Assembly: GCA_963565915.1 (NCBI GenBank) | Contig: OY751490.1 | Coordinates: 3,100,001-3,164,000 of the forward strand | Reading direction: 5' to 3' | Length of the DNA stretch: 64,000 nucleotides | Source of the DNA: Entoloma clypeatum | Taxonomy: Eukaryota > Basidiomycota > Agaricomycetes > Agaricales > Entolomataceae | Shown: in pieces, positions 10,287-64,000 of the stretch | Position numbering within the stretch: position 1 is the stretch's first letter | Layout of the letters: every line of letters starts with the position of its first letter | Translations under genes and position numbers: made by a program | The notes under the pieces: model-generated | Database searches by the model: none | What the model was told of the DNA's origin: nothing | Seen by the model: only the letters and a program-made list of their open reading frames with translations

Positions 10287-10288
10287 AG

Positions 10289-16080: not shown

Positions 16081-16117
16081 GTAGTCTGTGAGGACACAGA
16101 CCTTGAGGAGAGGAACA

Positions 16118-28949: not shown

Positions 28950-29027
28950 GGTTCAGTCCAACGTGGTCTATTTTTCAGTTCAGTTCAGTCCAGTTCAGGT
29001 CTATGTAGACTGAACCTTTGAACACTA

Positions 29028-29329: not shown

Positions 29330-29677
29330 TGTTACGGACTAACGACTACGGACGTATACGCTTACTTTTTCATTCTTACTCATCGGGCCCCGCTTACCTA
29401 TATTCTATGACACTCTACTTCCATTAGTATACTTCGCTCCCGCGCTGACTCGCTTCCCGCAGTCGTCTTACTCAGACACACTGCCTTCCGCAGTTATCTT
29501 ACTCAGATACACTGCCTTGCGCAGCACTGACTCATATGCTATCGCCTATAGTCAGTACCTATATAAACCCTTTGTATTGTAGCTAGATTCCTTAGATTTA
29601 GCAATCACATTGCTCTTCGCCTTTCCATCTTCCTGCATACTCTGCCCGAACCTTGGAACGGTTTGTTACGCATAACA
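29330..29677 (+). repeat. 5' LTR of element C
   Basis: 348 bases, TGTTACGG...GCATAACA. Compared with B it lacks 20 bases carrying one TGACTCA box, and differs in a block of about 60 bases near the start. Confidence 0.93.
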
Positions 29678-29737
29678 AGTTGCTAAATCTCATTAGGTTC
29701 GCCCAGAGCGAAGAGAGCAACTACCAGACGTGTTAAG

Positions 29738-30466: not shown

Positions 30467-30468
30467 AC

Positions 30469-31335: not shown

Positions 31336-31376
31336 ACGACGCTAAGTCGCGACCCTTATCCATTAAACGAACTCGC

Positions 31377-34300
31377 TTGCCTGGTGCAGTTACAGACAAT
31401 ATAACTTATGTTATCCCTGCAAAGCGAGCCGTTGCGTCAACTAAGATTGTCAAGGGAGATAAACCTCCGAAACGACGAGAGATCAAGCTGCAAGCTCAGA
31501 TCAAAACACGACGAGGACCAAAGGCCATTCGACCCGAGGTCGATAGCGGATGTGAACGCACATGTATCCATCCCAGAATAGTACGTGAACAGAACCTTCC
31601 CACACGTGGAATAAAGCCCATATCAATCCTAAATGCGGATGGATCGCCGAACCGACAACAGAAAGCAGAAAAACTTGCCGAAGTCAAGCTGGACTTAGGA
31701 ACACACCAGGAAACCATGGAAGCAATGGTATTGGACATTGGGAGAACGGATATGCTTTTGGGACATGACTGGTTGGTGCACCACAACCCTACAATCAATT
31801 GGACGACCGGCGCCGTAACATTCAACCGGTGCCCATCAACGTGTCAAACCAAACACTCGGATTTCAGGGTTAACCTTAATGGTCACAAACATCGGGTTCG
31901 CATGGTGGAAGTACGAGACAAGGACGCACCCAGGAAATCGGATCAGAAATGGAAGCCCGGAGACCCCATATTGGAAGCAATTACTCCCACACCACCTCCC
32001 ACAACCAAACGACCCTCATACGTTGAACGTTTTGCCCATCTTTTTGAAAAAGAAAACTTTGACAAGATCCCAAAGGAAAGGGAATGGGACCACGGCATTG
32101 AACTTACATCGGACGCACCAAAGGAGCTAGGGGGAAACACATACCCTATGACCCAAAAGGAGCAAGAAGAACTGGATGAATTCATCGATGAAGGCCTGGC
32201 AACCGGAAAGATCCGACCGTCCAAATCCCCTTATGCATCACCCTGCTTCTTCATTAACAAGAAAGACGGTTCCAAACGATTGGTACAGGACTATCGCACG
32301 GTTAACAAATTCACGGTTAAGGACAAATTCCCACTCCCACGCATCAACGACCTCTTGGATGTATTGAAGGACGCAGTCTACTTCAACAAAATGGACATCA
32401 TGTGGGGATACAATAATGTGCGGATCAAAAAGGGTGACGAATGGAAAGCCGCCTTCTTGACCAGCCGAGGATTGTTTGAACCATTGGTCATGTTTTTCGG
32501 TCTCTGCAATTCCCCGGGAACGTTCTCTCGGATGATGGCCAGCCTATTCAGGGATCAGATCCGTCGGCGCATCTGTGTGATTTACATGGATGACATAGTG
32601 GTTATTGGTAAAACCAAGGAAGAACTCGCCCGGAATACCGAAGAGATCTTGCAGATCCTGTCGGACAATGACTTGTTCCTAAAGGAGAAGAAGTGTCTTT
32701 GGGAAGTAACGAAATGCCCCATATTGGGATATGTCGTTAGAGAAGGACGTGTTGAGATGGAAACTGAAAAGGTGGACACAATCCGGAACTGGCGATTTAT
32801 CGATGCTTCATTGAAGGATACTCAAACATCGCAAAGCCACTCACGACACTTACGGGAAATACAGCATTCACATGGGGACCAGCGGCGCAAGAAGCATTTG
32901 AAGGTCTCATACGGGCAATCACGACAGCACCAGTCTTGGCATTGCCCAAACCGGACGGACAGTTCAGGGTTGAAACCGATGCATCGGGTTATGCGATTGG
33001 AGCGGTACTCTCACAGAAACAAGACGACAAGTGGCATCCTATCGCGTTCTTGTCGCGGACCATGTCCGCGGCCAAACAGAATTACGAGATCTATGACAAG
33101 GAACTCTTGGCAGTCATGGAAGCACTGAAGGACTGGCGACATTATCTACTTGAAGCCAAGGAACGTTTCGAGATCTTAACCGATCACAAAAACCTGGAGT
33201 ATTTCCGGCGTCCTCAGGACCTAAACCAACGACAGAGGCGATGGAAGATGAAGTTACAAGACTATGACTTCGAATTGCGACATGTACCTGGGAAGACAAA
33301 CGCGAAAGCAGACATCCTATCACGTTTACCCTGGTATGAGACGGAACTCGAGCCGCAGGACAGCGACCAAATGCTCAAGGAAGGGCTATTTTTGAAACGA
33401 TTGGAATCAGAAGATGTGATACAAATGGAGATGTTCACGGAGGAACAAGTCTTTGAAGGGGGTGAAACATCTGATTCCATCAAAATCGGAAACATCACAA
33501 CCATCGAAAACCCATGGATTGTACGCATCAAGGCCTCAAATCGCATGGAGACAGAAGTAGCCCAGGGTCTGAAGAAGAATCCTCACTGGTACCAGCAGGA
33601 AAATGGCATCACCTACGCAGGGGAACGAGTCTATGTTCCACCAGACCCACAATTGCGCCAAGAACTAATGTTTGAAGCGCACGACGCACCAGTGGCAGGA
33701 CATCCAGGACAGTATCGAACACATGAACTCCTCACTCGCACCTACTGGTGGCCCACCATCCTACATGACGTAAAGAAGTATGTGAAAGGTTGTGACACCT
33801 GTCAACGCAACAAGATCAGCCGCCAAAGGAGACACGCCCCTCTGCACCCTAATGCCGCGCCAAGTCAACCATGGGAAGACATAGGGATTGACGTCGTGGG
33901 ACCGATACCAGAATCTGATGGGAAGAACGCAATTCTGGTCATCACGGACAGACATTCAAAGATGCTTCATCTCATCCCGACAACCGTGGAACTATCGGCT
34001 GAAGGATTAGCCAAGATCTATCGGGACCAGATATGGAAACTTCATGGAATTCCCAAAAAGATCATCAGCGATAGGGGACCGCAGTTCGCCGCGAAGTTTA
34101 TGGAGATACTTTGCCGCATGTTAGGGATCAAAAGAAATCTGTCCACTGCATACCATCCACAGACTGATGGACAGGCCGAACGATCGCATCAGGAAACTGA
34201 GGTGTTCTTACAAAACTTTGTCAACCATCTACAAGATGATTGGGCGGAATGGATCGCAATCGCAGAATTCCAGTACAATGACAAAGAACATCAAGCGACA

Positions 34301-34936
34301 AAGTACACACCATTCTATCTCAACTACGGTCTGCATCCTTGGAAGGGAGAACTTGTGTTGGAAGACACCAATCCGGCAGCAAACGACTTCTTGAAAAAAC
34401 TCAAACAGGCATGAGAAGAAGCCAACGCAGCACTGAAACAGGCATAGGATCAGATGAAGAAGCCAGTTGACACACGACGAAGCCCGTCTCGGAATTACCG
34501 CATCGGAGACAAGGTGTGGCTGGAAGGGACTAACATCAGGACTGATCGTCCCTCAAAGAAACTTGACACCCTCCGACACGGACCGTTCAAAGTCCTAGAG
34601 AAGAAAGGAGCTAGCGCATACCGTCTTGATCTTCCCAAAACCTGGAAAATGATCCACCCTGTGTTCAACGAAACCCTGTTATCGCCATATGAAACCCCGA
34701 AGTATGCCATTCAGAAAAAGAAGCCAGCCCCTGATCCGATCATCGTCGAAGGACGAGAAGAATACCATGTCTCCACGATCCTGGACTCTCGGAAATTCCG
34801 CGGAAAGATCCAGTACCTTGTCCAATGGGAAGGGTATGGCCCAGAAGAGAACACGTGGGAACCTCGGACTAATGTTCAGAACGCTCAAGACTTGATCCGA
34901 GACTTTCATCGGCAAAATCCATCGTGTCCACAATAA
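31377..34936 (+). pseudogene. pol: Element C pol, inactivated
   Basis: Same domain order as pol of B: protease (VDSGCE), RT with YMDD near 32586, RNase H, integrase and chromodomain. Three lesions. A 49-base deletion at 32795/32796 removes the start of the RT thumb (the bases at 13405-13453 in B) and shifts the frame. TGA at 34412-34414 replaces an Arg codon (CGA) and TAG at 34445-34447 replaces a Gln codon (CAG), both C-to-T changes, at the end of the integrase. The parts before and after are intact frames. Not functional without complementation. Confidence 0.92.
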
Positions 34937-35054
34937 AAGAACAAACCTTGAGAGCCATTTTCCACATCGACTTCCGTCACATTGAGTTCCCCGCTCCAAC
35001 TCTTCTCGCCCAACACGCCGTTCTTCTTATACCTTTCAAACATCATCTCTGCCA

Positions 35055-35422
35055 TGTCCAACATCACCGCCGCCTCCACCGATGCTTCCGATATCAACCC
35101 CACCATCACCACCCTCATCGGCGAAGCGCTCTCCATGCGCGACCAGATCCATGCGCTCGAAACCTCCGTCGCCGACATCCTTCACCGGCAGATGCATATC
35201 CGCCTTCATACCCTTTCCGATTTACCAACCGCCCCCACCGCTGAGGAGAAACTCATCCTCAAAAACTATACCAACACCCTTGCTGTCGAGAACCGACGCC
35301 TTCGCCTTGCCGTTCGAGGTTTAGAGTTTGCCACGGCGGTAAATGATGAACTGATAAAGGATTGGGGTAACCGAGTTGACCCTGCCTGGGCCGATCCAAA
35401 TGGCAACGATGGATGGGAGTAG
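35055..35422 (+). CDS. Element C third ORF downstream of pol, unknown function
   Basis: 122 residues, intact although pol of this copy is dead. Differs from the B version at A10D, T11A, L14I, T60A, T71N, V101I, A108V and T111A (positions approximate), with about 25 further silent codon differences. No recognised domain; helical, with LAVENRRLRLAVRGLE suggestive of a coiled coil, and a Trp-containing tail. This region and the LTR are far more diverged from B than gag and pol are, so C and B have different 3' ends by descent. Confidence 0.72.
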
Positions 35423-35459
35423 GTAGTCTGTGAGGACACAGACCTTGAGGAGGGGAACA

Positions 35460-35807
35460 TGTTACGGACTAACGACTACGGATGTATACGCTTACTTTTT
35501 CATTCTTACTCATCGGGCCCCGCTTACCTATATTCTATGACACTCTACTTCCATTAGTATACTTCGCTCCCGCGCTGACTCGCTTCCCGCAGTCGTCTTA
35601 CTCAGACGCACTGCCTTCCGCAGTTATCTTACTCAGATACACTGCCTTGCGCAGCACTGACTCATATGCTATCGCCTATAGTCAGTACCTATATAAACCC
35701 TTTGTATTGTAGCTAGATTCCTTAGATTTAGCAATCACATTGCTCTTCGCCTTTCCATCTTCCTGCATACTCTGCCCGAACCTTGGAACGGTTTGTTACG
35801 CATAACA
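35460..35807 (+). repeat. 3' LTR of element C
   Basis: 348 bases; differs from the 5' LTR by GACGTA to GATGTA and GACGCAC against GACACAC. Preceded by the purine tract GAGGAGGGGAACA. Confidence 0.93.
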
Positions 35808-35812
35808 AGGTC

Positions 35813-35925
35813 GGAGTGTCGGAGGGAAAGTCGGAGGTAAAGGAGGTGAAGAAAATGGTGAAGATGAATAAGGGGAAGAAAAAGGCGTCGGAGATGCCAT
35901 CGGAGAGTGGGTTGGAGGACATCGT
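35813..35925 (+). pseudogene. Zn2Cys6 coiled-coil gene fragment, right part
   Basis: Continues the frame broken by element C: GVSEGKSEVKEVKKMVKMNK, GKKKASEMPSESGLED, matching element D's gene at 48600-48510. Homology ends near ACATCGTCT at about 35925, where the fold-back repeat begins. Confidence 0.7.
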
Positions 35926-35929
35926 CTCA

Positions 35930-36840
35930 CCCTTAGGTGCATACAAAAGCCTAAGTGTCTGGTACTAGCCACAAGAATTGAAGCATTTATCCCCAATGCT
36001 AGCCACCAGTGGCTAGAGCCACAACTCGTATTATACAGTCAGTCACCCTGCCTGTGGCTCTAGCCATGGGTGTAACTGTGTTTATGTGAACAAATAATGG
36101 AATAAATCATTATTAATTCAGTAACTACTAATAATACAGGTGCACCATGCCATTACAGCACGTCCCCCACCTTGCTAGCATGCAACCTGCCATTCCTGCG
36201 TGCACCCCACTGTTCCCACGCGCATCCTGTTGTTCCTGGGTGCATTCTGCCTTTCCCGCGTGTCCTGTGCCGCTTCTCGTGTGCCTCCCGCCTCCCCCCA
36301 CGTGTCCCATGCCCCCAATCGCGTGCCCCGCCGTTCTCACGTGTTGTGCGCCATTTGTCGCGTGTTGCTCGTGTGCCCTGCCATTTCTTGCATGTCCGAC
36401 TGTTCCTCCCGCGTATCTGGTCTTTCCTGTGTGCCCTGTGCATACTGAAGCGGGACGGGACACACGGCAACGGCGGGAGGTGCACGAGAAACGGCAAGGC
36501 ACGCAACAAACGGCGCAGGACACGCGAGCAAGCGGCGGGGGTGGGGGCGCATGGATCCATGCGGGAAAGGCAGGATGCGCGCTGGCACGACGGGGGACGC
36601 TCTGTAATGGCGGGATGCACCTGTATTATTCGTAGTTACCGAATTAATAATGTTTTATTTCATTATTTGTTCATATAAACACAATTACACACATGGCTAA
36701 AGCAACAGGCAGGGTTATTGCCTGTGTGATATGAGTTGTGGCTCTAGCCACCAGTGGCTAGCGTCGGGGATAAATGATTCAATTCTTGTGGCTAGAGCCA
36801 GGATACAGAAGGCTATATTGTACCGCTAAGGCTCCTGGCC
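35930..36840. repeat. Fold-back element with long inverted repeats and a GC-rich centre
   Basis: Left arm about 35933-36170 and right arm about 36600-36836 are inverted copies: both carry TAGCCACAAGAATTGAA, GGGGATAAAT, the palindrome-like GCCACCAGTGGCTAG, an AT-rich stretch and GGTGCA(T)C...TAATGG. The centre (36170-36600) is a degenerate minisatellite with CGTGTCCC/GCCGTTCTC words that itself switches strand near 36450. No coding capacity; a MITE-like or snap-back transposon. Confidence 0.6.
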
Positions 36841-42857: not shown

Positions 42858-43169
42858 ACTCGTTATCCGACTCCGACGAAGCCACACGTCCTCCGACATA
42901 GTATTTAAATTTATGTAGAATCGTGTATTAGCTTCAGTTTGAATATCAACTTAGATTTGACATCACACCTCCCATCCTCTTTCCGACTCTTAACTTGAGT
43001 CTGACCTCCGATCCTTCGATCCTTCCGAAATAAGGACACCGACATATTAGCGAGGGCGCAACACACAAGTTGAAGCCAAGTCCTTGCCCCTACGTTGCAC
43101 ACGCTCCGACCCTCCGACCTTCCGACGCGTCCGACGTAGCTCCGACGTTTTGTCGATCAGTTCTTAACA
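42858..43169 (+). repeat. 5' LTR of element D, truncated
   Basis: Matches 49363-49656 with an 18-base insertion (ACTCTTAACTTGAGT region near 42990). TATTTAAA at 42902-42909 lies 33 bases before CAGTTTGAATAT (42935-42946), the inferred RNA start. The primer site ATATTCAAACTG follows at 43172-43183, two bases after the LTR, an exact 12-base complement. Confidence 0.85.
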
Positions 43170-43215
43170 GTATATTCAAACTGCCACTTGCTTATCCGTA
43201 TTTCAAATTCCAGTT

Positions 43216-44430
43216 ATGGCAGCCCGCAACACACAGAACTCCCGCGCAGCAGCAGCCGCAGCGGAAGCTTCAAACCTGCAGGACACCAGGGCGACATTTC
43301 TACATACGTTCCAAGATATTCCCGCAGAAGAATCTGCACCCAAACCTGACCCCATATCTCCAACACCTCGTCTCTGAACACCTCAGACACAAGGACCTCC
43401 AATTCCTGGTCCTTTTAAATCTCCGACCTCTTCTTTTGACGATAACAATCCTTTCCGTCGCGAGCAAACTCCAAACCTCGCCAAAGCAATTATGCTTATG
43501 ACGCAGGAGCTCCGACATAGAGAGACTCCGAAGACTCCGAAAAAGAAATCAAAGGAACCTGACACTTTTGACAGTTCCGACTCTCGGAAACTTACTAGTT
43601 TCCTCGCTCAATGCACACTATATTTCCGAAACAACCCCGCCTTTGACGACGATGATAACAAAGTCAGTTTCGCTCTGTTGTACCTCCGAGGAACCGCGCT
43701 TGAATGGTTTGAGTCCACCCTCTTGGGAGAGTCCGACAACGACTCTGTCTGGTTGGACAACTGGTCCGCCTTTGTGCACATCCTCCGATCCGAATTCGGA
43801 CCTATCAATCCGACCGGAGAAGCAGAGGATAGTCTGGATCACCTTCAGATGCACGACAATCAGAAGATCCTACGTTACAACGTGGACTTCAAACATCTTT
43901 CCGCTCGCACACAGTGGGATGATGGCGCGCTCCAATATCGGTACTATACCGGTTTAGCGGAACATATCAAAGATGTTTTAGGAACCTACCCCAAACCTAA
44001 GACTCTGGCCGAGTTGAAGATAATAGCCCATAACATTGATGCCCGCTACTGGGAACGTCAACGCAAGAAATCACGCTCCTCCAACAAATCTACTCCGAAA
44101 TCCGACAAATCCGACAAATCCGACAAGAAACAGACCCCCGCTTCATCATCCTCCAATAACAACTCGTCGTCTAAACCCAACTCGCAACAACAACAAAAAT
44201 CGTCATCCACCTCTCTGAAATCCGCCTTCTCCAACAAACTTGGCAAAGATGGGAAATTAACTCCCCAAGAATGCCAACGACGATTTGACAATAATTTATG
44301 CATGTTTTGCGGCAACGTTGGTCATCGGGCTTCCAACTGCTCGAAGAAATCGTCTTCTAACGCCAAAGCAAAGGCCCGCGCGGCCCAAGCTGAGGACAAA
44401 TCGGAGAAGACGACCGAGTCAAAAAAATAG
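43216..44430 (+). pseudogene. gag: Element D Gag, one nonsense codon
   Basis: The frame starts MAARNTQNSRAAAAAAEASN at 43216, has an in-frame TGA at 43375-43377 (codon 54), then continues open to 44430. Capsid-like part: KLTSFLAQCTLYFRNNPAFD, VSFALLYLRGTALEWFE, FGPINPTGEAEDSLDHLQMH. A Ser/Asn/Gln-rich linker leads to one zinc knuckle CMFCGNVGHRASNC near the end. From 43492 the rest is intact over 312 codons. A restart at ATG 43492 could give a shortened Gag. Related to the Gag of element E by lineage (E is cut by the window edge). Confidence 0.82.
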
Positions 44431-44549
44431 TAAGCAGTCCTCAGATTCCAGCACGTACTGGGGATTGCATTGACTCCTTTCGTGCACCTTTGGAAACCCT
44501 CTGACTCAATGCATCCGCTCTCTCAAATCCGAACTCTCTATGTATTGAT

Positions 44550-47500
44550 TTGATATCTCTGACCTTTTCCGATTCTCTTCCGATAAAGACTCTTATTGAT
44601 TCTCGTTCTACACATTGCTTCGCAGATACCAGATTTATTTCTTCTTTAAACTTATCTCCGACTCCGATTCCTTCACCTATGGTTTTGAAACTTTTTGACG
44701 GTTCTTCAAATACTTATATCACGCAATCTATCGATCTTCCTCTCCAATTCCCTTCCGGTGAACTTCTGACCGTCGCGTTTTACATGACAACCCTCGATTC
44801 GTCTTGTAATTTGGTTCTAGGACACAACTGGCTCACCCGCTACAATCTGTTGATTGACTGGGTATTGGGCAGTATCTTATTCTGTTCTACATTACCCGAC
44901 ACTCCGAGTCCGACTCCGACGTCGACTGCTGAGGCAGCTCCGCCACCTCTGCAGTATCCGCCCTCTCCGATGGGCATCTCCGATCCGCTCACTCCAAATA
45001 CCTCTGACCTGCCACAGATTACCATGGTCAATGCAGCCGCATATCTCCATGCATGTAAAGCTCCTGGGGCATACACTTTCCGCGTTCACCTCTCCGACAT
45101 CTCCGCCAATTCCGCGTCTGTCTCCGACGATGCTCCCGACCTCTCTGGCATACCTGAGGAATACCACAATTTTGCTGATGTATTCAGTAAGAAAAAAAGC
45201 CGACACCCTTGCACCCCACCGACCTTATGACCTCAAGATCAATTTGGAGGAAGGTACTTCCCCTCCGATTGGTCCAATGTACTCACTCTCGCAATCCAAA
45301 CTTGGATCCCTCTGAGACTTCATCGACGAGCATCTCAATATCGGTTTTATTAAACCTTCAAGTTCACCTCACGGCGCTCCAATCCTCTTCGTCCGAAAGA
45401 AAGATGGATCACTCCGACTATGCGTCGACTACCGAGGCCTGAACAAAATCACGAAGAAGGACCGATACCCACTTCCGCTCATCTCCAACCTCTTAGCCAC
45501 TGCCGGAAAAGCACGTGTTTATACCACCATAGACCTCCGACATGCATACCACCTAGTCCGCATCGCTGAAGGTGACGAATGGAAAACTGCATTCCGCACT
45601 TGCTATGGATCGTTTGAATGGTTAGTCATGCCATTTGGATTGTCTAACACACCTGCAGCCTTTCAACGTTTTATGAACGACATCTTCTCCGACCTTCTGG
45701 GCAACTGTGTTACCGTTTACCTCGACGACATCCTGATCTACTCCGACAACCCCGAGGAACACAAAAAACATGTCTGAGAAGTCCTCCAATGACTCCGACA
45801 ACATGGTCTTTACGCCCGCGCCGACAAGTGCGACTTCTCTGCCGAAACTGTAGAATATCTTGGATTTATCCTTTCTCCCAATGGACTCAAAATGTCGGAA
45901 GCGAAAGTCAAGATCATTCAGGATTGGCCTGAACCGCGCAGAGTGAAGGACGTCCAGTCCTTTTTAGGTTTTGCAAACTTTTATCGATGTTTCATTCCAT
46001 TCTATTCCAACATCACTATTCCACTCACTCGTTTAACCAGGAAACATGCCACTTGGCAATGCTCGAACCGCTTTTAATGACCTGAAAAAGGCATTTACCA
46101 CCGCTCCGATCCTGACACACTGGATCCCCGACTCTCCGATAATTGTCGAAACCGATGCATCCGACTATGCCCTAGTGGCTATTCTGTCAATAGTCACCTC
46201 CGACAATGAAGTCCACCCTGTCGCATTCCATTTCCGCACCTTCACGGCCCCCAAAGTAAACTATGACACCCACGATAAGGAACTTCTTGCCATCTACGAA
46301 GCGTTTAAAATTTGGCGCCATTATCTCGAAGGCTCCGGTACTCCGATTGACATCGTTACCGACCACAAAAACCTCGAATATTTTGCCACCACCAAAGTTC
46401 TTTCACGCCGACAAGTCCGATGGTTGGAATACCTTTCCCAGTTCAACCTCGTCATCCGATTCCGCCCCGGCTGATTGGGAACTAAACCCGACTCTCTAAC
46501 TAGACGTTGGGATGTCTACCCTAAAGGGGGAAATAGCGACTACGTTGACATCAATCCGACCAACCTCCGACCAGTCTTTTCGCAAGAACAGCTCTCCACT
46601 TCAGTTTGCGCGACTCAACTCCTTGAGCCCGTCCTCCGTGCAACCATTATCATGGACACAGAGAAGCTCCACCATGACATACTCACAGCACTCCCTTCCG
46701 ACACTCTTTACAACACTCTTTCTAAAGATCCTAAACCCCGCTGGTCTCTCGACCCCAATGGTTTCCTCCGACATGACGATCGGATATACGTTCCCGACTC
46801 CGACAACCTCCGACTCCAAGTCCTACAGCACAAGCACAATCATATGCTTGCTGGACACCCAGGTCAGAACAAGACACTCAGTCTCATTCAGCGTGATTAC
46901 ACCTGGCCCGGAATACGAGATTTCGTTAAACACTATTGCAAGTCATGTACCACTTGCATGCGATCGAAGCCACAAAGACACAAGCCTTATGGCCTACTCA
47001 AACAGCTTCCGATCCCTGAATGTCCTTGGAATTCTATCTCAATGGATTTCATCGAGACCCTTCCGACCTCCGACAACTTTGATTCAATCCTCGTTATCGT
47101 TGACCGATTAATGAAACAAAGTATTTTCATTCCGACAACAATTCACTGCACCTCCGAAAACCTTGCTGTACTCTTCGTATTACACGTCTTCTCTAAACAC
47201 GGTGTCCCCGAACATATCACCTCCGACCGTGGCCCCGAATTCGTCTCCCGATTCTTCCGATCTCTCGGAAAGGCTCTAAACATGACCCTCCACTTCACCT
47301 CTGGTTACCACCCCGAAGGCGATGGCCAAACCAAACGCACTAACCAGACCCTCGAACAGTACTTGCGGATATTCTGCAACTATCAACAGGACAACTGGTC
47401 CGCTCTCCTTCCGATTGCGGAGTTCGTGTACAACAACGCACCAAGTGCTACCACTGGCATATCTCCCTTCTTTGCTAACAAGGGTTACCATCCGAACATT

Positions 47501-48121
47501 ACTGTTCACCCGGAACGAGACCTCGCCTCTTCCCGAGCCCGATCCTTCGTGACCGACTTAGACGAACTTCACCAAGAACTGAAAGCCACCATCTCCGACG
47601 CTCAACGATGTTACCAGAAGTCCTCCAACAATAATTGGATCGCACCTCCGACATTTTCTGTTGGACAACAGGTTTTCGTCAAAGCACAGTTCTTCCGCAC
47701 AACACGCCCATCCAAGAAACTCTCAGAAAAGTACTTGGGACCATACGAGATCATTGCACAACCCGGCACACACTCCTTTATCCTCCGACTCCCCGACACA
47801 TTCTGCGGTGTTCACCCCATCTACCACGTCTCCATGCTTGAACCCGCAACTCCGAACACCATTCCAAATCGGACCCAACCTCCGCCTCCTCTGATTGACA
47901 TTGACGGAGAACTTGAGTACGAGATCGCTGAAATAGTCGACTCAAAGATCGACCGACGACGTAGCTGCAAGCTACTATATTTCGTCCGTTGGTTAGGATA
48001 TGAAAACACTGATGAAGAATTCTCTTGGCTACCAGCCAATGAATTGGAAAACGCCCCCGAGCTTGTCTCCGACTTTCACTCTGCTCATCCCGACAAACCA
48101 GGTCTGCTCACATCGCTCTGA
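44550..48121 (+). pseudogene. pol: Element D pol, multiply broken
   Basis: Protease with KTLIDSRSTHCFAD, where the catalytic Asp-Ser-Gly reads Asp-Ser-Arg. RT includes [33 protein letters not shown] and the catalytic YLDD ([13 protein letters not shown] near 45718). RNase H ([19 protein letters not shown]), integrase (HPGQNKTLSLIQRDYTWPG, CTTCMRSK, SMDFIETLP, TSDRGPEFV, YHPEGDGQTKRTNQTLEQYL) and a chromodomain (GELEYEIAEIVDSKIDRRRS, LYFVRWLGY) follow. Lesions: frameshift near 45200, TGA near 45315, TGA near 45775, frameshift near 46060, TGA at 46472-46474. From 46475 to 48121 the frame is intact. Its closest relative in the window is pol of element E. Confidence 0.9.
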
Positions 48122-48149
48122 AACAAGAAAAAACAAGTACTATTTCTAT

Positions 48150-49046
48150 CTACTTAGTACGTTGTTTCTTGTTTGACGGACCCTCCTCCTTGTCCGACTC
48201 CTCCTTGTCCGACGGCTCCGAAATCGACATGTCGGAATTCTCCGACAGCTCCGGCAACTCCAACCTTTTCCTATTCACCATGTCCTTCCTAATCCTTCTC
48301 GCGATCCTCTTCTCCAGTCTCAACTTGTGCGTCTCCTCCGCCGTATCCATCTCCAACTCCGACCCTTCCTCCGACACCTCCGGCGACTTGGGTTGATACT
48401 CGATGTTCACTGAGCCTTCGACTGCTGTTAGCAGACGCCTCACCTGCCTCGTCTCTGCCAGTATCATCTTGAGGACACCCAAGACGGTGTCCTGCGACCC
48501 ACTCTCCGATGGCATCTCCGACGCCTTCTTCTTCCCCTTATTCACCTTCACCGTTTTCTTCACCTCCGACTTTCCCTCCGACGCTCCGACCTCGCACTTC
48601 TTCTTGTCTTTGATACAACCCTTGCAGGACGACTTATTCCTAAAACAAAAGGTTAAAACAGAAAAAACGAACCAAAGAAGAACTCACTCGTCGTGTTCGC
48701 ACTCGACACCCTTCACAATGCACCTATCGCAGGTGCCAACCCCAACCTCAACTCCCGACCCCTCTCCGACCATCGCCGACACCTCCTCCACCTTCCTCTT
48801 CTTCATCGCCCTCTTCTTCTTCTCCGCCTGCGGCTCCCCCGACCCCTTGCCCGACGTGCCTTGTGCAGCGGCCACCTCATCGGCCCTCTTCTGAGCCGCC
48901 AGCTCCGACGCCCTCTCTTCCTCTGCTCTCCACTCCTCCTCAGCCTTCTTGGCAGCCTCCTCCTCCGCCGCTCGCTTCTTAGCCTCCACCTCCGCAAGTT
49001 TGGCCTGCAGCGCCTCCAATTCTTTCTGGAAATCAGTTGCCGACAT
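48150..49046 (-). CDS. Antisense accessory gene of element D: coiled coil plus Zn(II)2Cys6 cluster
   Basis: Two exons, 49046-48688 and 48639-48150, with a 48-base GT-AG intron; 282 residues. Residues 5-55 are a Lys/Glu/Ala-rich coiled coil (LEALQAKLAEVEAKKRAAEE). A basic patch (EKKKRAMKKRKVEE) precedes CDRC-x6-C, eight residues, CKGC-x6-C, which fits the fungal Zn2Cys6 pattern C-x2-C-x6-C-x5-12-C-x2-C-x6-8-C; the intron falls in the eight-residue linker. The C-terminal half is acidic (SEEGSELEMDTAEETHKL) and ends NKKQRTK, NLS-like. It is tail-to-tail with pol, 28 bases apart. All six cysteines are kept although gag and pol are broken. A DNA-binding regulator is likely by family; target and role are inference. 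Confidence 0.8.
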
Positions 49047-49215
49047 TTTGAGGATTTATCGGAAGAGTTTTTTCAAGCGGAAAGATAATGGGGGGGAACA
49101 AGAAGAAAGAACCACTCAGACGGTATTTTCAACCAATGCATCACATGACACAGTTCATGCGCACCGACCACCTAGGTCCTTAAGCCTCATGGGTTCGGCC
49201 CTAAGGAGGAAATAC

Positions 49216-49656
49216 TGTTACATTCCGATCAGCTCCGACAATTTCTGACCAATTCTGACACCTCCGACACCTCCGACATTTTGACTAATACTTATTATGC
49301 ATACTTACTGTTATGAAACGTACATTACTTACATCCGACCATGTTAAGCATCTCCAACAGCCACTCGTTATCCGACTCCGACAAAGCCACACGTCCTCCG
49401 ACATAGTATTTAAACTTATGTAGAATTGTGTATTAGCTTCAGTTTGAATATCAACTTAGATTTGACATCACACCTCCCGTCCTCTTTCCGACCTCCGATC
49501 CTCCGATCCTTCCGAAATAAGGACACCAACGTATTAGTGAGGGCGCAACACACAAGTTGAAGCCAAGTCCTTGCCCCTACATTGCACGCGCTCCGACCCT
49601 CCGACCTTCCGACGTGTCTGACGTAGCTCCGACGTTTTGTTGATCAGTTCTTAACA
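49216..49656 (+). repeat. 3' LTR of element D
   Basis: 441 bases, preceded by CTAAGGAGGAAATAC, which matches the polypurine side of element E (CTAAGAGGGGAATAC). U3 contains CTCCGACAC direct repeats near 49255-49280. Carries the same TATTTAAA and CAGTTTGAATAT signals as the 5' LTR. Confidence 0.85.
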
Positions 49657-52600
49657 CGTCGGATATATGTACATGGGTCGGATTTCAATGGTTTAAATCC
49701 AATTAATTGGAGTTGTTGGTCAAGTACTTTATTCCACTCTCTTCCAGCTTGTTTTAAGCCGTAAATGGTCTTTACCAAACAGCATACACAATTTGTTCCA
49801 TCGTGATATTCATCTGGTTGACACATATAAACATGTTCACATAATAATCTGTTTAAATAAGCACCCTTGACGTCCATCTGTTGGACCCTTAGGTCCTTTG
49901 CAGGGACAAGCACGAGAATTGCTCGTATAGTTTCGAGCCTGATCACGGGTGAAAATGTTTCATTATAATATTGTCCGGGCCTTTGTGAAAATCCTCTCGT
50001 GACTAATCTTGCTTTGTATTTCACAAGTTCCCCAGCTTTATTGAACTTTTTGATGAGTACCCATTTGTTTGTAATGGGAGTAATGTTTGTTGGTTTGTCG
50101 ACAAGCTCCCATGTTCCCATTTGATTCAATTGATTGAGTTCAATATTAATAGCCTTTTCCCATTCAGGCCATTCAGAAGATTGCTTGACGTCTTTTAAGC
50201 TTTTCGGTTCCTCATTTCCCAGAGGATGTTCCGAAAAAACTGCGTAAATTATTTCTGCAGATGTGAGTGAGGTTTTTTGAACCTCTTCCTCTTCATCTGT
50301 AAATGGATCATTTAGCCATTGATAATCGATCTTAGGCCTTTTTTGTAAGTTTCTTTTTTCAGGGTTTATTTTTAATTCATCATGTTTCCTTTTACAGTGC
50401 GGTTCTTGGACGGTCGATCCAGTTACGTCTGATTTCGACGCACTTCCACTTGGCTCCCCCTCGCGGAGTATATCAGGCGCTATTTCAACTTTGATACCAT
50501 CGATTTGTGAAGGGGGGTGATTGGTTAGAGTAAGGAAACAAAAATTCCTCGAGGTAAGTATTTTTCTTATTTCACTGTAATAATATTTTACAGCTTTCGA
50601 ATCATCGTCAAATCCTACAAAGGTTTTTTGACATGATTTGAGTTCGGGTTTATGTCCCTTTGCTTGGCCTTGTTGGAGAATCCAAATGGGAGCTCCAAAA
50701 TCTCGTAGATTTTTTACATTTGGTTTTTCTCCTGTCCAAGCTTCATAGGGTGTTTTATCAGTTAATGCTTTGGTGTATGCTCGATTTCAAAGATAGATGG
50801 CATGTCGAACTGCATATTCCCATAAAAAGATAGGGAGATTGCACACATTAATCATTGCACATGCAAGTTCAACTAAAGTTCTATTCATCCGTTTGGCAAC
50901 ACCATTTTGTGAAGGTGAATAAGGTGCAGTAGATTGTATTGTTATTCCTTCCTTGTGAAACCAATCAGTAAGATCTTTATTAATAAATTCCCCACCTTTA
51001 TCGAAGGGTATTGCTTCGGAAACCATACCGCAGATTTTAAGGTTAGAAATATAGTTTTTGAGTTTTTCCGTTGCTTCAGTTTTGGACTTTAAACCTTGTA
51101 CGGTAGTAAAATGTGAATAGTCGTCAATAAAACTTAAAAAATACTGATAACCATTGATTGATACTACTGGAAATTTCCCCCACACGTCAACATGTGTGAG
51201 TTTTCCAGGTTTTGTGCTTCGATGTTCAGTTTGATGCGGAAATGGATTGATTGATTGTTTTGCCTCCATACAGGCTTGACAATTGGGTTTAGCAGAATTT
51301 TTATCAACATCAAAACCATCTACAAGATTTTTGTCAAGTAGATGTTGTAAGCCCGTATATCCAATATGACCAAAACGTCGGTGCCATGTTTCCCATGATT
51401 GGGTATTTTTGTGTGCATCATAAACATGGTTTTTTAATGGTTCTGTGCGTTGATCGGTTATTTTATAGACTTGCACATTCATTTTATATAGATTAGTATT
51501 CAAATGTTTCCCTGTTGTGGTGACTAAACCATTTTTGTTAATCAGGGAAAGAATTCCGTGGTTGACTTCAATACGTCCTCCATATTTATCCCAATGTCCC
51601 AACGCAAGTAGATTATTGCGGTTAGTTGGTATATATAGGACATCTTTCAGGGTTGAAACATATGTTTTCCCATTGACTTTTGATTGAATTTTGATGGTTC
51701 CATGGCCTTCCGCTCCAACAGCAGAACCTCCGACACCTTGTACTTGAGCTTTATCGAAGGGATAGAATCTGATAAAAATATCATGCTGGTTGGTTATATG
51801 TGACGAAGCACATGTATCTCCCAACCAATCATAATAAGAAATAGTTTCGTCAGTCTCGCTATCATAATACATTTCATCTTTTTCATTGTTAACAACCTCT
51901 TCAACCTTTGATGATGTAGCAACGTGAGTTTGATCGAGTTTTGATGTCTGAGCAACGATGTCTGTGTTCATAGCAATGTGCGTTTGCTCAGTGTTCATCA
52001 TTTTATTCCCCTTCTTACCATCATTTTTGTCTCCCGCGAACCTTTTCTTTCCATATTTCCAAATTCCTTTGGGTCGCCTACAATTGTTGGCGTTATGCCC
52101 AAATAGGTGACAGTTTCAACACTTTGGTTTCAGGAACCAACAATCTTTGATAAGGTGGCCATCTCGGTGGCAATTGGTACATTTCTTGAAATGGCTGATG
52201 CAATTGATGAAGGGACATTTATTTTGGGACAGATCATGATTCCCAAAAGCTTCAGTGTGATGGCGCTTGCCCGATTTGGGTGTGTTGGACGCCTGTGGAT
52301 AGAAAGCTTGCGCAATTTCTTTGTCCTCAGGGTCAACTATTCCCTGTCGTCGCCTGTATTCCTCTTTTACCAATCCAATAAAATCTTGTGCGTCAATATC
52401 AAGTTTAACATCTTTGGCTTTATTCCCGACCCGTTTCGCAACATAGGGTTGAACATACATGTCCCATGAAGGAGGTAAGGAAGCAGCGACGGCACCTTAA
52501 AATAATTCATTTGAGATTAGAAACGCTTTGACATTAAAGTCGTTAAGAAGTTTCCAATATTCCATTAACTTATGCACATGGGTTGCGATACCATCACCCT

Positions 52601-52985
52601 CCACGGCACGTGTTTGGAATAAAGCGCGCTGTATTGCAAGCACTGTTTGATGCCCCTTTTCCTCATGTGTAGCTTTAAGAGCCCTCCACATTCCATGGGA
52701 ACTATTCATGTGAGAAATATTACAAAACTGATCCTTACGGATATTCTTCCAGATTAAACACCGGGTAAATTTGTTGTTGTATTGCCATATTCCCCAATCA
52801 TCGGGTCTGGTTACTTTATCGGGTTCCACAAGGGTCCCATCAACAATGGATAGAAGTTCACCAAAGTCAAACACTCCAGTGATTTCCTCTTTCCATGTAG
52901 CCCAGTTATTCTCAGCAAGTTTTTCGTCTAACTGGGATACAGAATGCAAACTTTTTGTGTCAACACGAGTAAGAGTGTGATCCAT
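49657..52985 (-). pseudogene. Copia element F Gag-Pol (Gag, protease, integrase, RT), with three in-frame stops
   Basis: One continuous frame of about 1110 codons on the minus strand starting MDHTLTRVDTKSLH at 52985. Gag ends with CTNCHRDGHLIKDC and a second knuckle NCHLFGHNANNC. Protease WLGDTCASSHI has Cys for the Gly of DTG. Integrase: HRRFGHIGYTGLQHL with CQACMEAKQ, core DVWGKF, SFIDDYSHF, FDKGGEF, YSPSQNGVAKRMNRTLVELA. RT: WELVDKP, KYKARLVTRGFSQRPGQYY, QMDVKGAYLNRLL, IYGLKQAGREW. Stops: TAA at 52497-52499, TGA at 52116-52118 (Trp of the second knuckle), and a stop at 50787-50789. The frame is cut at 49657 by element D before the YVDD box, which was lost. Confidence 0.9.
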
Positions 52986-53018
52986 CAGATAGACGTAGCA
53001 TATATTTAGTAATGGGCG

Positions 53019-53030
53019 GGGCCCATAACC
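53019..53030 (-). other. Copia-type primer site for half of initiator tRNA-Met
   Basis: GGTTATGGGCCC on the minus strand, between the LTR-like segment and the gag start. It matches the complement of the anticodon arm of initiator tRNA-Met, the primer site used by Drosophila copia and many relatives. Confidence 0.7.
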
Positions 53031-53040
53031 TTTTAGCAGT

Positions 53041-53179
53041 TGCGCAGATTGTCGCCGAGAGATGGGGAAGCAAGAAAGGTTAATTCTCCGCTAATCGGAG
53101 TGAGTATATATATATATTACATTGTATGTCTCAGTTGTATGTCATATTGCCTGTATTCGGCTTGTATGGAATCCTAACA
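53041..53179 (-). repeat. Probable 5' LTR of copia element F
   Basis: Minus strand starts TGTTAGGATTCC at 53179 and ends CTGCGCA at 53041, with a TATATATATATA box inside. 139 bases is short for an LTR, and the partner LTR is outside the window, so the limits are provisional. Confidence 0.4.
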
Positions 53180-59605: not shown

Positions 59606-61557
59606 CGCTCTAGCAGTGTAGTATAGAAACCTGGTAGCACCATAGTATTGTAGTCTCATAGCCTGGTGTAGTACTCAATATTTCTCTAGGTTGGTTGACA
59701 CTCTTGCATGTCACAGGGGTGTTTTTTTTTCATTCCTAAGAAATACTCACAGCTGGTTATCATGTAAAAATATGTATTAGATATTGTGCTACACTGAAAA
59801 TATACAAAAATGCCCCGTGTCTCCGTACATCCCTCACCATGTGAGGTCTCTCTCATCACCCCTGCTCCTCGTGTCCAGCCCAACATGGCCCCCACATGCA
59901 GCCTCTTGCCTCTCATGTCCCTCAGCTCTCATCCCCGCATGTTGTCCCACCATTTTTGTGTGTCCCGTGTCATTTTGCACCATTGTTCATGCGCCTCCCA
60001 CCGTTCCTGCATGTTCTTGCATGTCCCCGCCATTTCTTGTGTGTTTCGTCAGTGGTCTGACATGACATGAATGGCAGGGTGCTTACCTATACGGGGCCCC
60101 CCGCACCCGTTGTGTCCCTCAGCTCTCATGCGTGCTTGTCACCCGCGTCCCGTATGCCCCTGGTGTGTGCTCAAAACCTGTGTCCCATACGCGCCTCGCC
60201 TGCGCTTCGTGCACTGGTGCGTTTGGCCCATGGTGTTTGGGTGTCCTGCATCCTGTGTTGTTTCTGCACCGTTCTCGTCTCTCCCGTGCCGTTGCTTGCA
60301 TGTCTCCCATGTCCCGCCGTTGCTCGCATGTCCCCCGCCGTTTCTCGTGTTTTTTGTCAGTGGTCTGGCGCCAGGTGAATGGTGGGTGCTTACCCATACG
60401 GCCTCTGTGGCCCTCATGTGAACAAAGGGAGGAGGCATTGACAGAGGGGAAGGGAGGGAGGGATGAGGAGGGAGTGGATGGAGATGGGGGGAGGCAAGAT
60501 AGACGATGTGGGACTTAGGATATTTTTTGACTTTCGGCTGTTGCCGAATATTTCTCAATAGAGCCTCACCATGTCACGTCTCTTGCCTCCCCCAATCACC
60601 TCCCTCCACTCTCGCCTCCTCCGTTTGTCCCTCCCCCTCCATCAATGCCTCCTCCCTTCATTCACACGAGGGCCACAGAGGCTGTATAAGTAAGCACCTG
60701 CCATTCACATGGCGCCAGACCACTGACGAAACACACGAGAAACGGCGGGAAACACACAGGCATGGCAGGGGACACGCGAGCAATGGCGGGACACAGGAGA
60801 CACGCGAGCAACGCCATGGGAGAGACGAGAACGCCGCAGAAATGACACGGGACACGGGACTACGGCAGACAAGACCCGGCAGGGAACGGTGTGGAACACA
60901 CGAGAACGGCGGGGCACGCGCGAAAGGCGGGCAGCAGCATGGCGCAAAAAATGGTACACGAGAATGGCGACAGGTGCACTGGGCATGCGTGGGAGGCAAG
61001 ACAGGGCGGGAAACCGCTGTTAGACACGCATGGCGCATACTTGTCAGGTAAGCACCCTGACACATCACCTGCGTGAGCCCCCTGACGCACCAAAGAACAG
61101 GCCAATGTCAGGGACACACACACAAACACAGGGGGATGCACCAGTCCACGATGAACTGCAGGCGGAGGTGCAAAGAGGTGGGGGCAATGTATACCATACT
61201 TCATTAATTTTGTAATTATGTATATCCTGCAATGAATTGGTTAATTGGTTTAATCATTTTTCTTTGGATTTATGGTTTGTGAGTTTAGTAGTAGCAAGAG
61301 AGCAATACTAATGGTATGTAAGATATGCCTTGCTATGGAGCGCTATGGAGTGCTTTGTAGCAAATTGCTATGGAGTCCTATGTAGCATGAGTATGTGATT
61401 CTGTAGCACTTTGTAGCATGAGTATGTGACTCTGTAGCACTTTGTAACATGAGTATGTGACTATATAGTGCTACAAATGAAATAATGTATGTTACAGTGC
61501 TATACCACTATGGAGTGCTATCAAGTGCTACCTAGCACACGTCTCGTTTGCTGATGT

Positions 61558-61883
61558 AGATCAACAACTGGATATGTATACCTTGGAAGTGGAGGTGCAA
61601 TAATGTGGGGTTCACGAAAACAAACTTTAATTACCCTATCATCGACGGAAGCCGAATACATTGCGTTATCAGAAGCTACATGTGATGCAAAATGGCTAAA
61701 ATCTGTATGATGAATTAGGTTTCTATCAACAGGGTCCAATACTCCTTTTAGGGGATAACAATGGATCACTGGCAATGGCGAATAATCCGCAATATCATAA
61801 ACGATCAAAACACATCGATATTCGATGGCATTGGATTCGAGAACAAATACAAAATGGACTGATATATCTCGAAGACTGCTGTG
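61558..61883 (+). pseudogene. Copia RNase H, C-terminal half (other half of element F)
   Basis: Plus strand TTGYVYLGSGGAIMWGSRKQ, TLITLSSTEAEYIALSEATC, DAKWLKSV, a frameshift, then LGDNNGSLAMANNPQYHKRS, KHIDIRWHWIREQIQNGLIY. It begins exactly where the minus-strand copia half at 42551 stops, with the shared target TA. It is cut at 61883 by element E. A frameshift near 61705 and a changed codon near its start (TAGATC for TACATC) show decay. Confidence 0.8.
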
Positions 61884-62596
61884 TGTTAAGTAGGTGAAAC
61901 GTCGGAGCTTCGTCGGAGTCCGTCGGAGGTCGGACGTAAGACTGAGACTGGAGCGGAACTCCGGAAATGCGGAGGAACGACGAAGGGGAGGGACGTGGCT
62001 TCAACGTATGTGTTGCGCCGCCGTTTGTTGGATAAGGTGTCCCAATTTCAAGAGGTCAGAGGAGGGGTCGGAGGTGTGGAGGTCCTCGGAGAGATCTTGG
62101 TGAGAGACACATTGACGTGGAAATGGTCGGACGACGTCGGAGTTGTGACTCGGACACAGTACTGAGCTCGTCAAAGGGTAACGATGGAGGAAGAGCAGTA
62201 GATGAGGATGTCGTCGGCGTATTGTACCATGGCGAGGATCTCTGGCATGGACTGAGAGTAGAGGAGTGAACTTGGTTGATATTCAAACTGAGGAACTACA
62301 GGTATGGTACGAGCTTAAATACCTAGATGTGATTACTTTACGGAGATGGTCGGAGTAGGTCCGGAGTTGTGGCGTAAGTTGCCAGCGACTGTAACAAACA
62401 TCGGAGATGTCGGTCAACGGACCATGCGGAAAAGGCGATGCATAAGTAAACGGGAATATGGATATGAAATGCATAAAGGCATGGAGTTATGAATATGAAA
62501 TGCACAATGGCAACGTGCGGAGATGCAGAGGTAACGGATGTCCGGAATGTTGGAGGACTATCGGAGTGGATCAGAGATTCGGAGACGGATATAACA
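61884..62596 (-). repeat. 3' LTR of element E
   Basis: 713 bases; minus strand starts TGTTATATCC at 62596 and ends ACTTAACA at 61884. TATTTAAG (62321-62314) lies 31 bases before CAGTTTGAATAT (62290-62279), the same start word as in element D. Confidence 0.8.
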
Positions 62597-62715: not shown

Positions 62716-63574
62716 ATGCCCCAAGGCTCGAGCACGCAGCCCACCTGATCCAGCGCCAACCTAGACGACTCCGAAGAGGAGCTCCTGTGCCGTCTGGCAC
62801 AGATACGCAAGGAGAAAGAGGAGGCAGAGGCAAGGAAGAAGGCGGAGGCCGAGAGGAGGGCGAGGGAGGCAGAGGCGAAGAAGAAGGCAGAGGCGGAGGC
62901 GAAGGCGGAGAGGAAGAAAACAACGAAAATGGGGAAGCAGAGGGCAGAGAGCGGAGCGGAGGAGTCGGAGGTCCGGGGGGAGGCGTGTCAGGCCTGTGCG
63001 CAGGCGAAGGTGGAATGCAAGTGGGCGTTGTGAGTACCCACTTCTCCATTTTCTTTTTCTTACTGACAATCTCCTTAGGCAGGGAAAGGGCACCGCATGC
63101 CAGCGGTGCAAGGACGGCAAACGGGTATGCCTGAAGGCCGGCGAGACGCGGGCGAAGCGGAAACGGGGAAGGATGGAGGAAGCCGTTGCGGAGGTTGCGG
63201 GCCCGAGCGGGGCGAAAAACTGCTGCGGCGCAGGGGTCGCGGAGGAGCTCCGGGGGCTCCGGGAGGCTCTGGAAGAGAGGGAGGAGCAGTCGGCGAGGGT
63301 CGGTTGGGTGCTGCTCCGGCAGCTACAAATTATGAACAACCACCTCGCCTACCGGAATTTCCTTCTGGAGGCGGCGGCTCCGGAGTCGGAGACGGAGGAC
63401 GGAGAAGAGGAAGAAGGAGAGGAAGAGGACAAGGAAAAAGACGAGGGGGAGGACGAGGGGTTGGCGGACGGGGAGCTTGCGGAGCTGCAAGCAGAGAAAC
63501 AGGAGGTGGAGGGAGAAACGGAGGATGAGTCGGAGGATGACGGTCCGCCGGCCAAGAAGGCCAAAACCCAGTAG
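62716..63574 (+). CDS. Antisense accessory gene of element E: coiled coil plus Zn(II)2Cys6 cluster
   Basis: Exons 62716-63029 and 63079-63574, intron 49 bases, 269 codons. Same plan as the gene of element D: Glu/Lys/Ala coiled coil (RKEKEEAEARKKAEAERRAR), then CQAC-x6-C, ten residues, CQRC-x6-C, with the intron again in the linker and in the same phase; acidic C-terminus (EEEEGEEEDKEKDEGEDEG) ending PPAKKAKTQ. An in-frame TGA at 62746-62748 (codon 11) interrupts the frame after MPQGSSTQPT; either this copy is dead, or translation starts elsewhere. No other ATG precedes the coiled coil in frame. The stop is 58 bases from the pol stop on the other strand. Confidence 0.75.
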
Positions 63575-63632: not shown

Positions 63633-64000
63633 CTATAGGCATGATAAGGGGCCCGGTTTCTCTGGATACGCGGAGTGGAAGTCCGCGACTAAGTCCGTTG
63701 CGTGTTCGAGTTCCGTGGCGGGTAGCCAGGACTGTTCCTCATCGGTTCCTTCATAGCCCAGCCAACGGACTAGGTAGAGCAGTTTGCAAGAACGCCGCCG
63801 ATCCAATTTAGTGTCGAGGATTTCGGTGATTTCGTACTCCAGTTCTCCTTCAACATCGATCGGAGGAGGCGGAGTTACTGTCCGGTTCAGAATGTCGTTC
63901 GGAACAGATGGCTCTAGCATGGAGATGTGGAATACGGGGTGAACACCGTGGATGGTGTCCGGAAGTTGGAGGGTATAAGAGTGTGTACCATTCCTGGCAA
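63633..64000 (-). CDS. pol: Element E pol, C-terminal end with chromodomain (cut by window edge)
   Basis: Open from the window edge on the minus strand: LQLPDTIHGVHPVFHISMLE, then the chromodomain VEGELEYEITEILDTKLDRR, LLYLVRWLGYEGTDEEQSWL, and ELEHATDLVADFHSAYPEKP to the stop at 63633-63635. Very close to the pol end of element D (GELEYEIAEIVDSKIDRRRS). No defect in the visible part; most of pol lies outside the window. The chromodomain suggests heterochromatin targeting. Confidence 0.88.
   Translation of the reverse strand, partial: ARNGTHSYTLQLPDTIHGVHPVFHISMLEPSVPNDILNRTVTPPPPIDVEGELEYEITEILDTKLDRRRSCKLLYLVRWLGYEGTDEEQSWLPATELEHATDLVADFHSAYPEKPGPLSCL

What the first reader, a model, noticed from the sequence alone, without database searches (positions are those of the whole stretch)
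48150..49046. Ty3/gypsy elements carrying an antisense, spliced Zn(II)2Cys6 regulator tail-to-tail with pol
In D (48150-49046) and E (62716-63574) a two-exon gene on the strand opposite to pol lies between pol and the 3' LTR. Both have an N-terminal coiled coil, a basic patch, the full six-cysteine spacing (C-x2-C-x6-C-x8/x10-C-x2-C-x6-C), a phase-2 intron in the same linker, an acidic tail and a terminal NLS-like KK-x-R/K-TK motif. In D all cysteines are intact while gag and pol have several lesions. Zn2Cys6 clusters are the hallmark of fungal transcription factors; I know of no described gypsy lineage with such a gene. An intron in an antisense gene can survive retrotransposition because the genomic RNA carries its complement.
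Basis: partly seen in the sequence, partly recalled or inferred. Interest (0 to 1): 0.9.

Follow-up and report, generated by a model that had tools for sequence, protein, structure and literature searches.

The report
Antisense spliced zinc-cluster gene in retrotransposons
Several families of jumping genes in this fungal genome carry, on the strand opposite to their replication genes, a small intron-containing gene for a probable DNA-binding protein that evolution has kept intact, which suggests that the parasites encode their own regulator.

Summary
In element D (a Ty3/gypsy chromovirus) a two-exon gene lies antisense between pol and 3' LTR (exon 1 48688-49046, 48-nt intron, exon 2 48150-48639; 282 aa). 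It is a family trait: three diverged gene types (D, E, F), each in tens of copies. Of 37 pol ends fetched, 34 have a near-complete gene, always antisense; three keep remnants. The coding frame is conserved in each type (pooled pN/pS 0.27, 0.33, 0.32); the six cysteines are kept in 98.5-100% of cells, other codons in 86-90%, and splice sites nearly always. The cluster is Zn2Cys6-like but not accepted by Pfam. New here: D, D2, E and F elements are packed with a motif, CTCCGA[C], mostly on the gag-pol strand, over-represented even inside pol codons of D and E. The gene-less family G carries the motif too, on both strands, so motif and gene are not proven partners. Antisense genes in this slot are known in plants and in Botrytis Boty elements; the protein type and its conserved intron look new, the architecture does not.

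The parts
42858..43169 (+). Element D, 5' LTR, the part that aligns to the 3' LTR (its beginning is missing or replaced)
43378..44430 (+). Element D gag (Retrotrans_gag; CCHC knuckle below cut-off)
44505..46474 (+). Element D protease and reverse transcriptase, and a piece that I name RNase H from recall, in several open pieces (interrupted copy)
   Evidence: RNase H not searched
46475..48121 (+). Element D integrase (H2C2; core domain 29.2 bits, cut-off 32.6), SH3_Tf2-1 and chromodomain: end of pol
48688..49046 (-). Antisense gene of D, exon 1: charged helix, basic patch, Gly-rich linker, first three cysteines
48640..48687 (-). Intron of the antisense gene, 48 nt, GTGAGT...TTTTAG, phase 2
48150..48639 (-). 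Antisense gene of D, exon 2: last three cysteines, basic stretch, acidic tail, C-terminal GPSNKKQRTK
48594..48731 (-). Six-cysteine cluster, C-x2-C-x6-C-x8-C-x2-C-x6-C, split by the intron
49216..49656 (+). Element D 3' LTR (starts TGTTACA after a purine-rich tract, ends TTAACA); 12 TCCGAC on the + strand, none on the -, counted over 49214-49656
42858..49656 (+). TCCGAC motif spread over element D: 66 on the gag-pol strand, 2 on the other
62716..63029 (+). Antisense gene of element E, exon 1 (in-frame stop at 62746-62748 in this copy)
63030..63078 (+). Intron of the E gene, 49 nt, GTGAGT...CTTAG
63079..63574 (+). Antisense gene of element E, exon 2
63636..64000 (-). End of pol (SH3/chromodomain region) of element E, tail-to-tail with its antisense gene
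61880..62420 (-). Approximate 3' LTR region of element E; 8 TCCGAC/GTCGGA in 541 bp
   Evidence: boundaries not determined

Best explanation
A lineage of Ty3/gypsy chromoviruses in this fungus carries a true accessory gene on the strand opposite to gag-pol. It is transcribed from the 3' LTR side, spliced, and encodes a nuclear coiled-coil protein with a Zn2Cys6-like cluster that binds nucleic acid and regulates the element's own expression. Because the genomic RNA holds only the complement of the intron, splicing does not remove it during transposition. Shown by sequence: position, orientation, intron, conserved reading frame, conserved cysteines, a predicted N-terminal helix, presence in three gene types. 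Inferred: transcription, zinc binding, nuclear location, and the regulatory role on its own LTR or chromatin, possibly through the CTCCGA[C] motif packed into these elements.
For: Antisense and near-complete in 34 of 37 loci taken from the pol list, remnants in the other 3. pN/pS in the coding frame 0.27 (D), 0.33 (E), 0.32 (F), pooled over chosen pairs with open frames, against 0.83-2.02 in the four frames that do not share third positions. In sets not filtered for cysteines, cysteines kept in 193/196, 227/228 and 70/70 cells of D, E and F against 86.0, 88.1 and 89.6% for other codons; GT kept in 32/32, 38/38 and 12/12, AG in 28/32, 38/38 and 11/12. Among 71 copies with an open spliced frame the intron is phase 2 in 71, and in 0 of 71 would the frame go on if the intron were kept; lengths of 46-64 nt include poly-T slips that leave the spliced frame untouched. 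The cluster resembles host Zn2Cys6 proteins more than Cys-preserving shuffles do (as good: E 1 and 1 of 300, D 4 and 11, D2 3 and 2; hhalign 89.4% probability, 1 of 100 column permutations as good). C-terminal KK in all five aligned proteins. Recent activity: one D copy has LTRs identical over 480 bp, one E copy 99.6% over 688 bp.
Against: No expression data. Pfam does not accept the cluster and prefers ADD_DNMT3, also below cut-off, for E. The PDB profile search found no zinc-cluster relative. AlphaFold gave mean pLDDT 46, confident only for the N-terminal helix, on a sequence with the intron read through. F's likeness to host clusters barely exceeds shuffles (30 and 38 of 300). Between types dS is above 1 and the ratio (0.44-0.87) says little. 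The motif also occurs, on both strands, in family G, which has no such gene, and in the antisense frames of E and F it hardly exceeds synonymous shuffles (43 and 40 of 500 as many).
Confidence: 0.6

Rival explanations
1. The gene product is an RNA-level accessory factor (packaging, export or translation of genomic RNA) rather than a DNA-binding regulator; the one-sided UCCGAC motif in genomic RNA would be its binding site.
For: In the D, E, D2 and F elements examined (two D, one of each other) the motif lies mostly on the gag-pol strand, hence in the genomic RNA (66:2, 85:4, 42:0, 33:7, 30:4), also inside D's antisense gene (11:1), so the gene's own mRNA would nearly lack it.
Against: Zn2Cys6 clusters are known as DNA binders (general knowledge); family G has the motif on both strands and no gene; motif density is highest in the D LTR (27 per kb), which fits a promoter as well.
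Confidence: 0.15
2. The antisense protein curbs its own element (copy-number control), or the antisense RNA itself does, through double-stranded RNA.
For: An antisense RNA from this gene would overlap the 3' part of the genomic RNA (inference from gene order); PMC7264820 (passages read) proposes such roles for plant antisense ORFs.
Against: Conservation acts on protein-coding positions and on cysteines, which an RNA-only effect does not need; many equal-scoring copies and young LTR pairs point to recent amplification.
Confidence: 0.15
3. A captured passenger gene, or a reading frame that is open by composition only.
For: Low-complexity, charged sequence; long open stretches also on the sense strand (median 206 aa); no relative in the protein database searched.
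Against: Conserved frame, splice sites and cysteines in three diverged types, and presence at nearly all sampled pol ends.
Confidence: 0.04

Closest known systems
Plant antisense additional ORFs between pol and 3' LTR (Grande gene23, RIRE2, Retand with TRP28/PF04195)
   Same: Gypsy element, gene antisense between pol and 3' LTR, kept in most copies or clusters, predicted DNA binding (Retand TRP28), nuclear protein (Grande) (PMC7264820 and PMC11963269, passages read)
   Different: Different protein; the word 'intron' does not occur in either main text; Retand is described as non-chromovirus; here fungal chromoviruses, one short intron, a six-cysteine cluster
Boty-like elements of Botrytis cinerea with the antisense gene brtn (Zhao et al. 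2011, title seen in reference lists only)
   Same: Fungal gag-pol element with chromodomain (PMC4227169, passage read) and one extra antisense gene
   Different: Not compared: the paper is not in the library and no brtn sequence was at hand; whether brtn has a cysteine cluster or an intron is unknown to me
HBZ of HTLV-1
   Same: Works-like comparison only: antisense gene transcribed from the 3' LTR, spliced, nuclear, acts on viral transcription (PMC9822710 and PMC11963269, passages read)
   Different: bZIP protein of a retrovirus; no homology tested or expected
VANC anti-silencing proteins of Arabidopsis VANDAL transposons
   Same: Works-like comparison only: element-encoded binder plus a short motif accumulated in its own element (PMC5735166, passages read)
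   Different: VANC21 motifs sit in non-coding repeats of a DNA transposon; here the motif is also inside coding sequence, one-sided, and also in gene-less family G; binding is untested
Fungal Zn2Cys6 transcription factors (PF00172)
   Same: Six-cysteine spacing; some likeness beyond the cysteines for D, D2, E
   Different: Below the Pfam cut-off and no fungal_trans domain in the scans; the cluster follows a long helix instead of lying near the N-terminus

Membership tests
Fungal Zn(II)2Cys6 cluster proteins | Six cysteines spaced C-x2-C-x6-C-x5-12-C-x2-C-x6-8-C (spacing rule recalled) | tested here: met
   x8 or x10 in D, D2, E, x11 in F. Of 34 D, 39 E and 12 F comparisons made without asking for cysteines, 33, 38 and 12 were alignable; cysteines kept in 193/196, 227/228, 70/70 cells
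Fungal Zn(II)2Cys6 cluster proteins | Pfam PF00172 score over the curated cut-off (21 bits) | tested here: not met
   D and E no hit, D2 12.7 bits, F 9.5 bits
Fungal Zn(II)2Cys6 cluster proteins | Sequence likeness beyond the cysteines | tested here: inconclusive
   E, D and D2 beat nearly all Cys-preserving shuffles, F does not (30 and 38 of 300 as good); host profile from only 8 of 18 fetched host stretches
Fungal Zn(II)2Cys6 cluster proteins | The known two-zinc fold | tested here: inconclusive
   AlphaFold model not confident there, and it carried the intron read-through
Fungal Zn(II)2Cys6 cluster proteins | Zinc and DNA binding | not testable with these tools
   needs purified protein
Ty3/gypsy chromovirus | gag, PR, RT, IN in this order with a chromodomain after IN, flanked by LTRs | tested here: met
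   Pfam hits in D (integrase core slightly below cut-off in this copy), LTRs
Antisense additional ORF between pol and 3' LTR (aORF-3R) | Position and orientation, present in most copies | tested here: met
   34 of 37 sampled loci near-complete, 3 remnants
Boty brtn family | Homology to BRTN | not tested
   sequence and paper not available
VANC-type self-targeting system | Motif accumulated in elements that encode the protein and not in others | tested here: not met
   motif enriched in D, D2, E, F, not in A, B, C, but also enriched in gene-less G and G2

The most novel reading that the evidence does not exclude
Probability: 0.2. Interest if true: 0.92.

Novelty: new variant of a known kind. 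Interest (0 to 1): 0.75.

Why it matters
It would show that fungal retrotransposons, like HTLV-1 and some plant gypsy elements, evolved a second, antisense regulatory gene, here kept together with an intron that only transcription of the other strand could splice out. The strand-biased motif that overrides codon choice gives a concrete target for binding assays and could show how transposons address themselves against host control.

Tried and rejected
Protein database: D (residues 88-260) and E (40-310) found no relative at E <= 0.001 among 326 and 7,994 candidates; the collection may hold few fungi. Viral contigs: none. PDB profile: no zinc-cluster relative. AlphaFold: uninformative for the cluster. 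Motif as an exclusive mark of gene-bearing elements: rejected, because G and G2 have it. L082 as an intron-less copy: rejected, the intron is there. My first reading of L116 as G's own LTR-gag junction (in a note) was wrong; L063 is the evidence. Three-in-a-row motif pattern over the whole genome: not completed, so motif clusters in host genes are unknown. Literature: of ten answered searches, seven bear on this; their listings showed no fungal gypsy element with a Zn2Cys6 gene. Subscription papers and preprints are not held.

Full report
The window is G000:C9:3100001-3164000, part of a 60-Mb assembly in 20 contigs. Short introns, 29 matches to the fungal Zn_clus family and many chromoviruses point to a fungus, probably a basidiomycete; this is my inference, no tool named it.

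Observation. Element D is a Ty3/gypsy chromovirus: gag, protease, RT, integrase with H2C2, SH3_Tf2-1 and chromodomain. Between the pol stop (48121) and the 3' LTR (about 49216) a gene runs the other way. Splicing one 48-nt intron gives 282 aa: a long charged helix (AlphaFold helix 3-61, pLDDT 81-87 over residues 1-40), a basic patch, a Gly-rich linker, six cysteines, a basic stretch, an acidic tail and ...NKKQRTK. Element E repeats the plan, although the window's E copy has an early in-frame stop.

It is a family trait. DNA search with D's gene gave 41 matches (40 of 188 candidates scored), with E's gene 41 (40 of 147); protein searches gave 240 (D, 138 of 307), 166 (E cluster, 150 of 269) and 133 matches (F, 125 of 302), exons counted apart. 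Starting from pol, 150 of 2,451 candidates were scored. I fetched 37 of those 150, picked by hand for spread with the gene lists already in view. 34 of 37 have the gene at 90% coverage or more, on the opposite strand, 25-78 nt after the last aligned pol codon. L073 has an internal deletion; L058 and L063 keep only the gene's 3' end, L063 because a family G element sits there, L058 for a reason not resolved. 32 of 37 have an open spliced frame over the cluster, 25 of these at least 260 aa. A third, strongly different type, F, came up this way (L066; its pol was seen in this one locus). D, E and F types share 27-37% aa identity, the six cysteines, the place of the intron and the C-terminal KK.

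Selection. Pooled over chosen pairs with open frames, pN/pS in the coding frame is 0.27 (D), 0.33 (E), 0.32 (F). The other five frames give 0.83-2.02, except the mirror frame, which shares third positions (0.36, 0.40, 0.40). Single pairs within families (D with D2 included) range 0.14-0.47; between types dS exceeds 1 and the ratio (0.44-0.87) is not informative. In sets not filtered for cysteines, cysteine codons are kept in 193/196, 227/228 and 70/70 cells, other codons in 86.0, 88.1 and 89.6%; GT is kept in 32/32, 38/38, 12/12 and AG in 28/32, 38/38, 11/12. Copies L001-L038 in these sets had been found by likeness to the gene, so they lean towards conserved ones. 71 of 90 loci gave an open spliced frame of more than 150 aa, 61 of at least 260 aa; ten are shorter, the window's E among them. 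That search asked for six cysteines, an intron inside the cluster and a GT[AG]NG donor, so these are no evidence; but phase was free and is 2 in 71 of 71, 68 have a [CT]T[AG]AC branch-like site, and in none would the frame go on if the intron were kept.

Mosaics. L039, L044 and L074 match D in exon 1 and the cluster (98.2-98.6% nt) but D2 after it (94.2-94.5%, against 74.2-74.4% to D), with a D-type pol. The swap point is just after the cluster, as recombination during reverse transcription could produce.

What the protein is. In Pfam, Zn_clus appears for D2 (12.7 bits) and F (9.5), below its cut-off of 21, and not for D or E. E's best hit is ADD_DNMT3, a GATA1-like zinc finger (14.9 bits, cut-off 26), also below cut-off. 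Against a profile of 8 host Zn2Cys6 stretches (8 of 18 fetched gave the full pattern), real clusters scored better than nearly all Cys-preserving shuffles in E (1 and 1 of 300 as good), D (4 and 11) and D2 (3 and 2), not in F (30 and 38); hhalign gave 89.4% and 1 of 100 column permutations did as well. I call it Zn2Cys6-like, not a proven member.

A motif nobody asked about. Element D has 68 TCCGAC/GTCGGA in 6.8 kb (10.0 per kb; other stretches of the window outside E 0-0.87 per kb), 66 of them on the gag-pol strand. A young D copy has 85:4, E 42:0, D2 33:7, F 30:4 plus 41 TCCGCT (these four stretches include some flanking DNA, one element of each). In the pol frame of the young D copy CTCCGA occurs 42 times against 8.3 in synonymous shuffles (maximum of 200: 15), in all three codon frames, and is the most over-represented hexamer; in E 23 against 8.6 (maximum 15), again the top one. 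In F's 449-aa frame the excess is small (TCCGAC 5 against 1.4, maximum 4; CTCCGA 4 against 1.7, maximum 5). In the antisense frames it is clear in D (12 against 5.4, 0 of 500) but not in E or F (43 and 40 of 500). Between D and E pol, TCCG is the best kept of 48 frequent tetramers (0.62, median 0.29). At identical amino acids the same codon is kept 65/92 inside the motif and 111/249 outside (stratified z 3.0; reverse comparison 4.4; D against D2 3.0; young D against the window's D 0.7, no difference). So the motif is held by selection or by continued spread.

The test that went against me. Elements A, B and C of the window show no excess (0, 5 and 5 sites) and no gene by tblastn with all four types; a copia-like stretch has 3 sites against 0.7 expected. 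But the abundant family G (pol 1356 aa) also has the motif, on both strands (16:9 in L113; pol TCCGAC 12 against 3.7, GTCGGA 8 against 1.6), and so has G2 (L115, 17:12). G has no antisense gene: none by tblastn in L113-L117 or L063, its LTR follows pol closely, and its gag frame opens directly after the LTR (L063). The motif is therefore not a private mark of gene-bearing elements. Either G borrows the protein, or another factor reads the motif. In this small sample strand bias, not presence, sets D, E and F apart.

Mechanism. I think the gene is expressed from the 3' LTR side and its nuclear protein regulates its own element. Transcription, zinc, nuclear location and target are inferred. Works like: HBZ of HTLV-1 (PMC9822710, passages) and perhaps VANC (PMC5735166, passages). 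Is a member of: antisense additional ORFs of gypsy elements (PMC7264820, PMC11963269, passages), as a new protein type; relation to Boty brtn untested (named in PMC8365987, PMC4227169, PMC5987419, passages; the 2011 paper itself not seen).

Noticed in passing
window 29023-29356 and 35810-36049: Pieces of another D-type antisense gene on the + strand, interrupted by the LTR element C (29328-35807).
   Followed up: partly
window 9917-16485 and 29328-35807: Two copies of one gypsy family, 96.4% alike; element A (LTRs 7117-7409 and 19590-19882) is interrupted by the first. None has the antisense gene by tblastn.
   Followed up: partly
G000 family G, e.g. L113, L114, L117: Very abundant chromovirus (pol frame 1356 aa, dozens of equal-scoring copies) with TCCGAC and AGCGGA on both strands but no antisense gene.
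   Followed up: partly
L039, L044, L074 (tested); L040, L046, L048, L072, L075, L076 match the same type best: Mosaic antisense genes: N-terminal part and cluster of D, C-terminal part of D2, with D-type pol.
   Followed up: partly
introns of L041, L042, L045 and L059-L065: Poly-T runs in the intron vary in length between closely related copies.
   Followed up: partly
window 49644-53090 and 61521-61880: Coding pieces that look copia-type (recalled, not searched) flank D and E, so both may sit in such elements.
   Followed up: no
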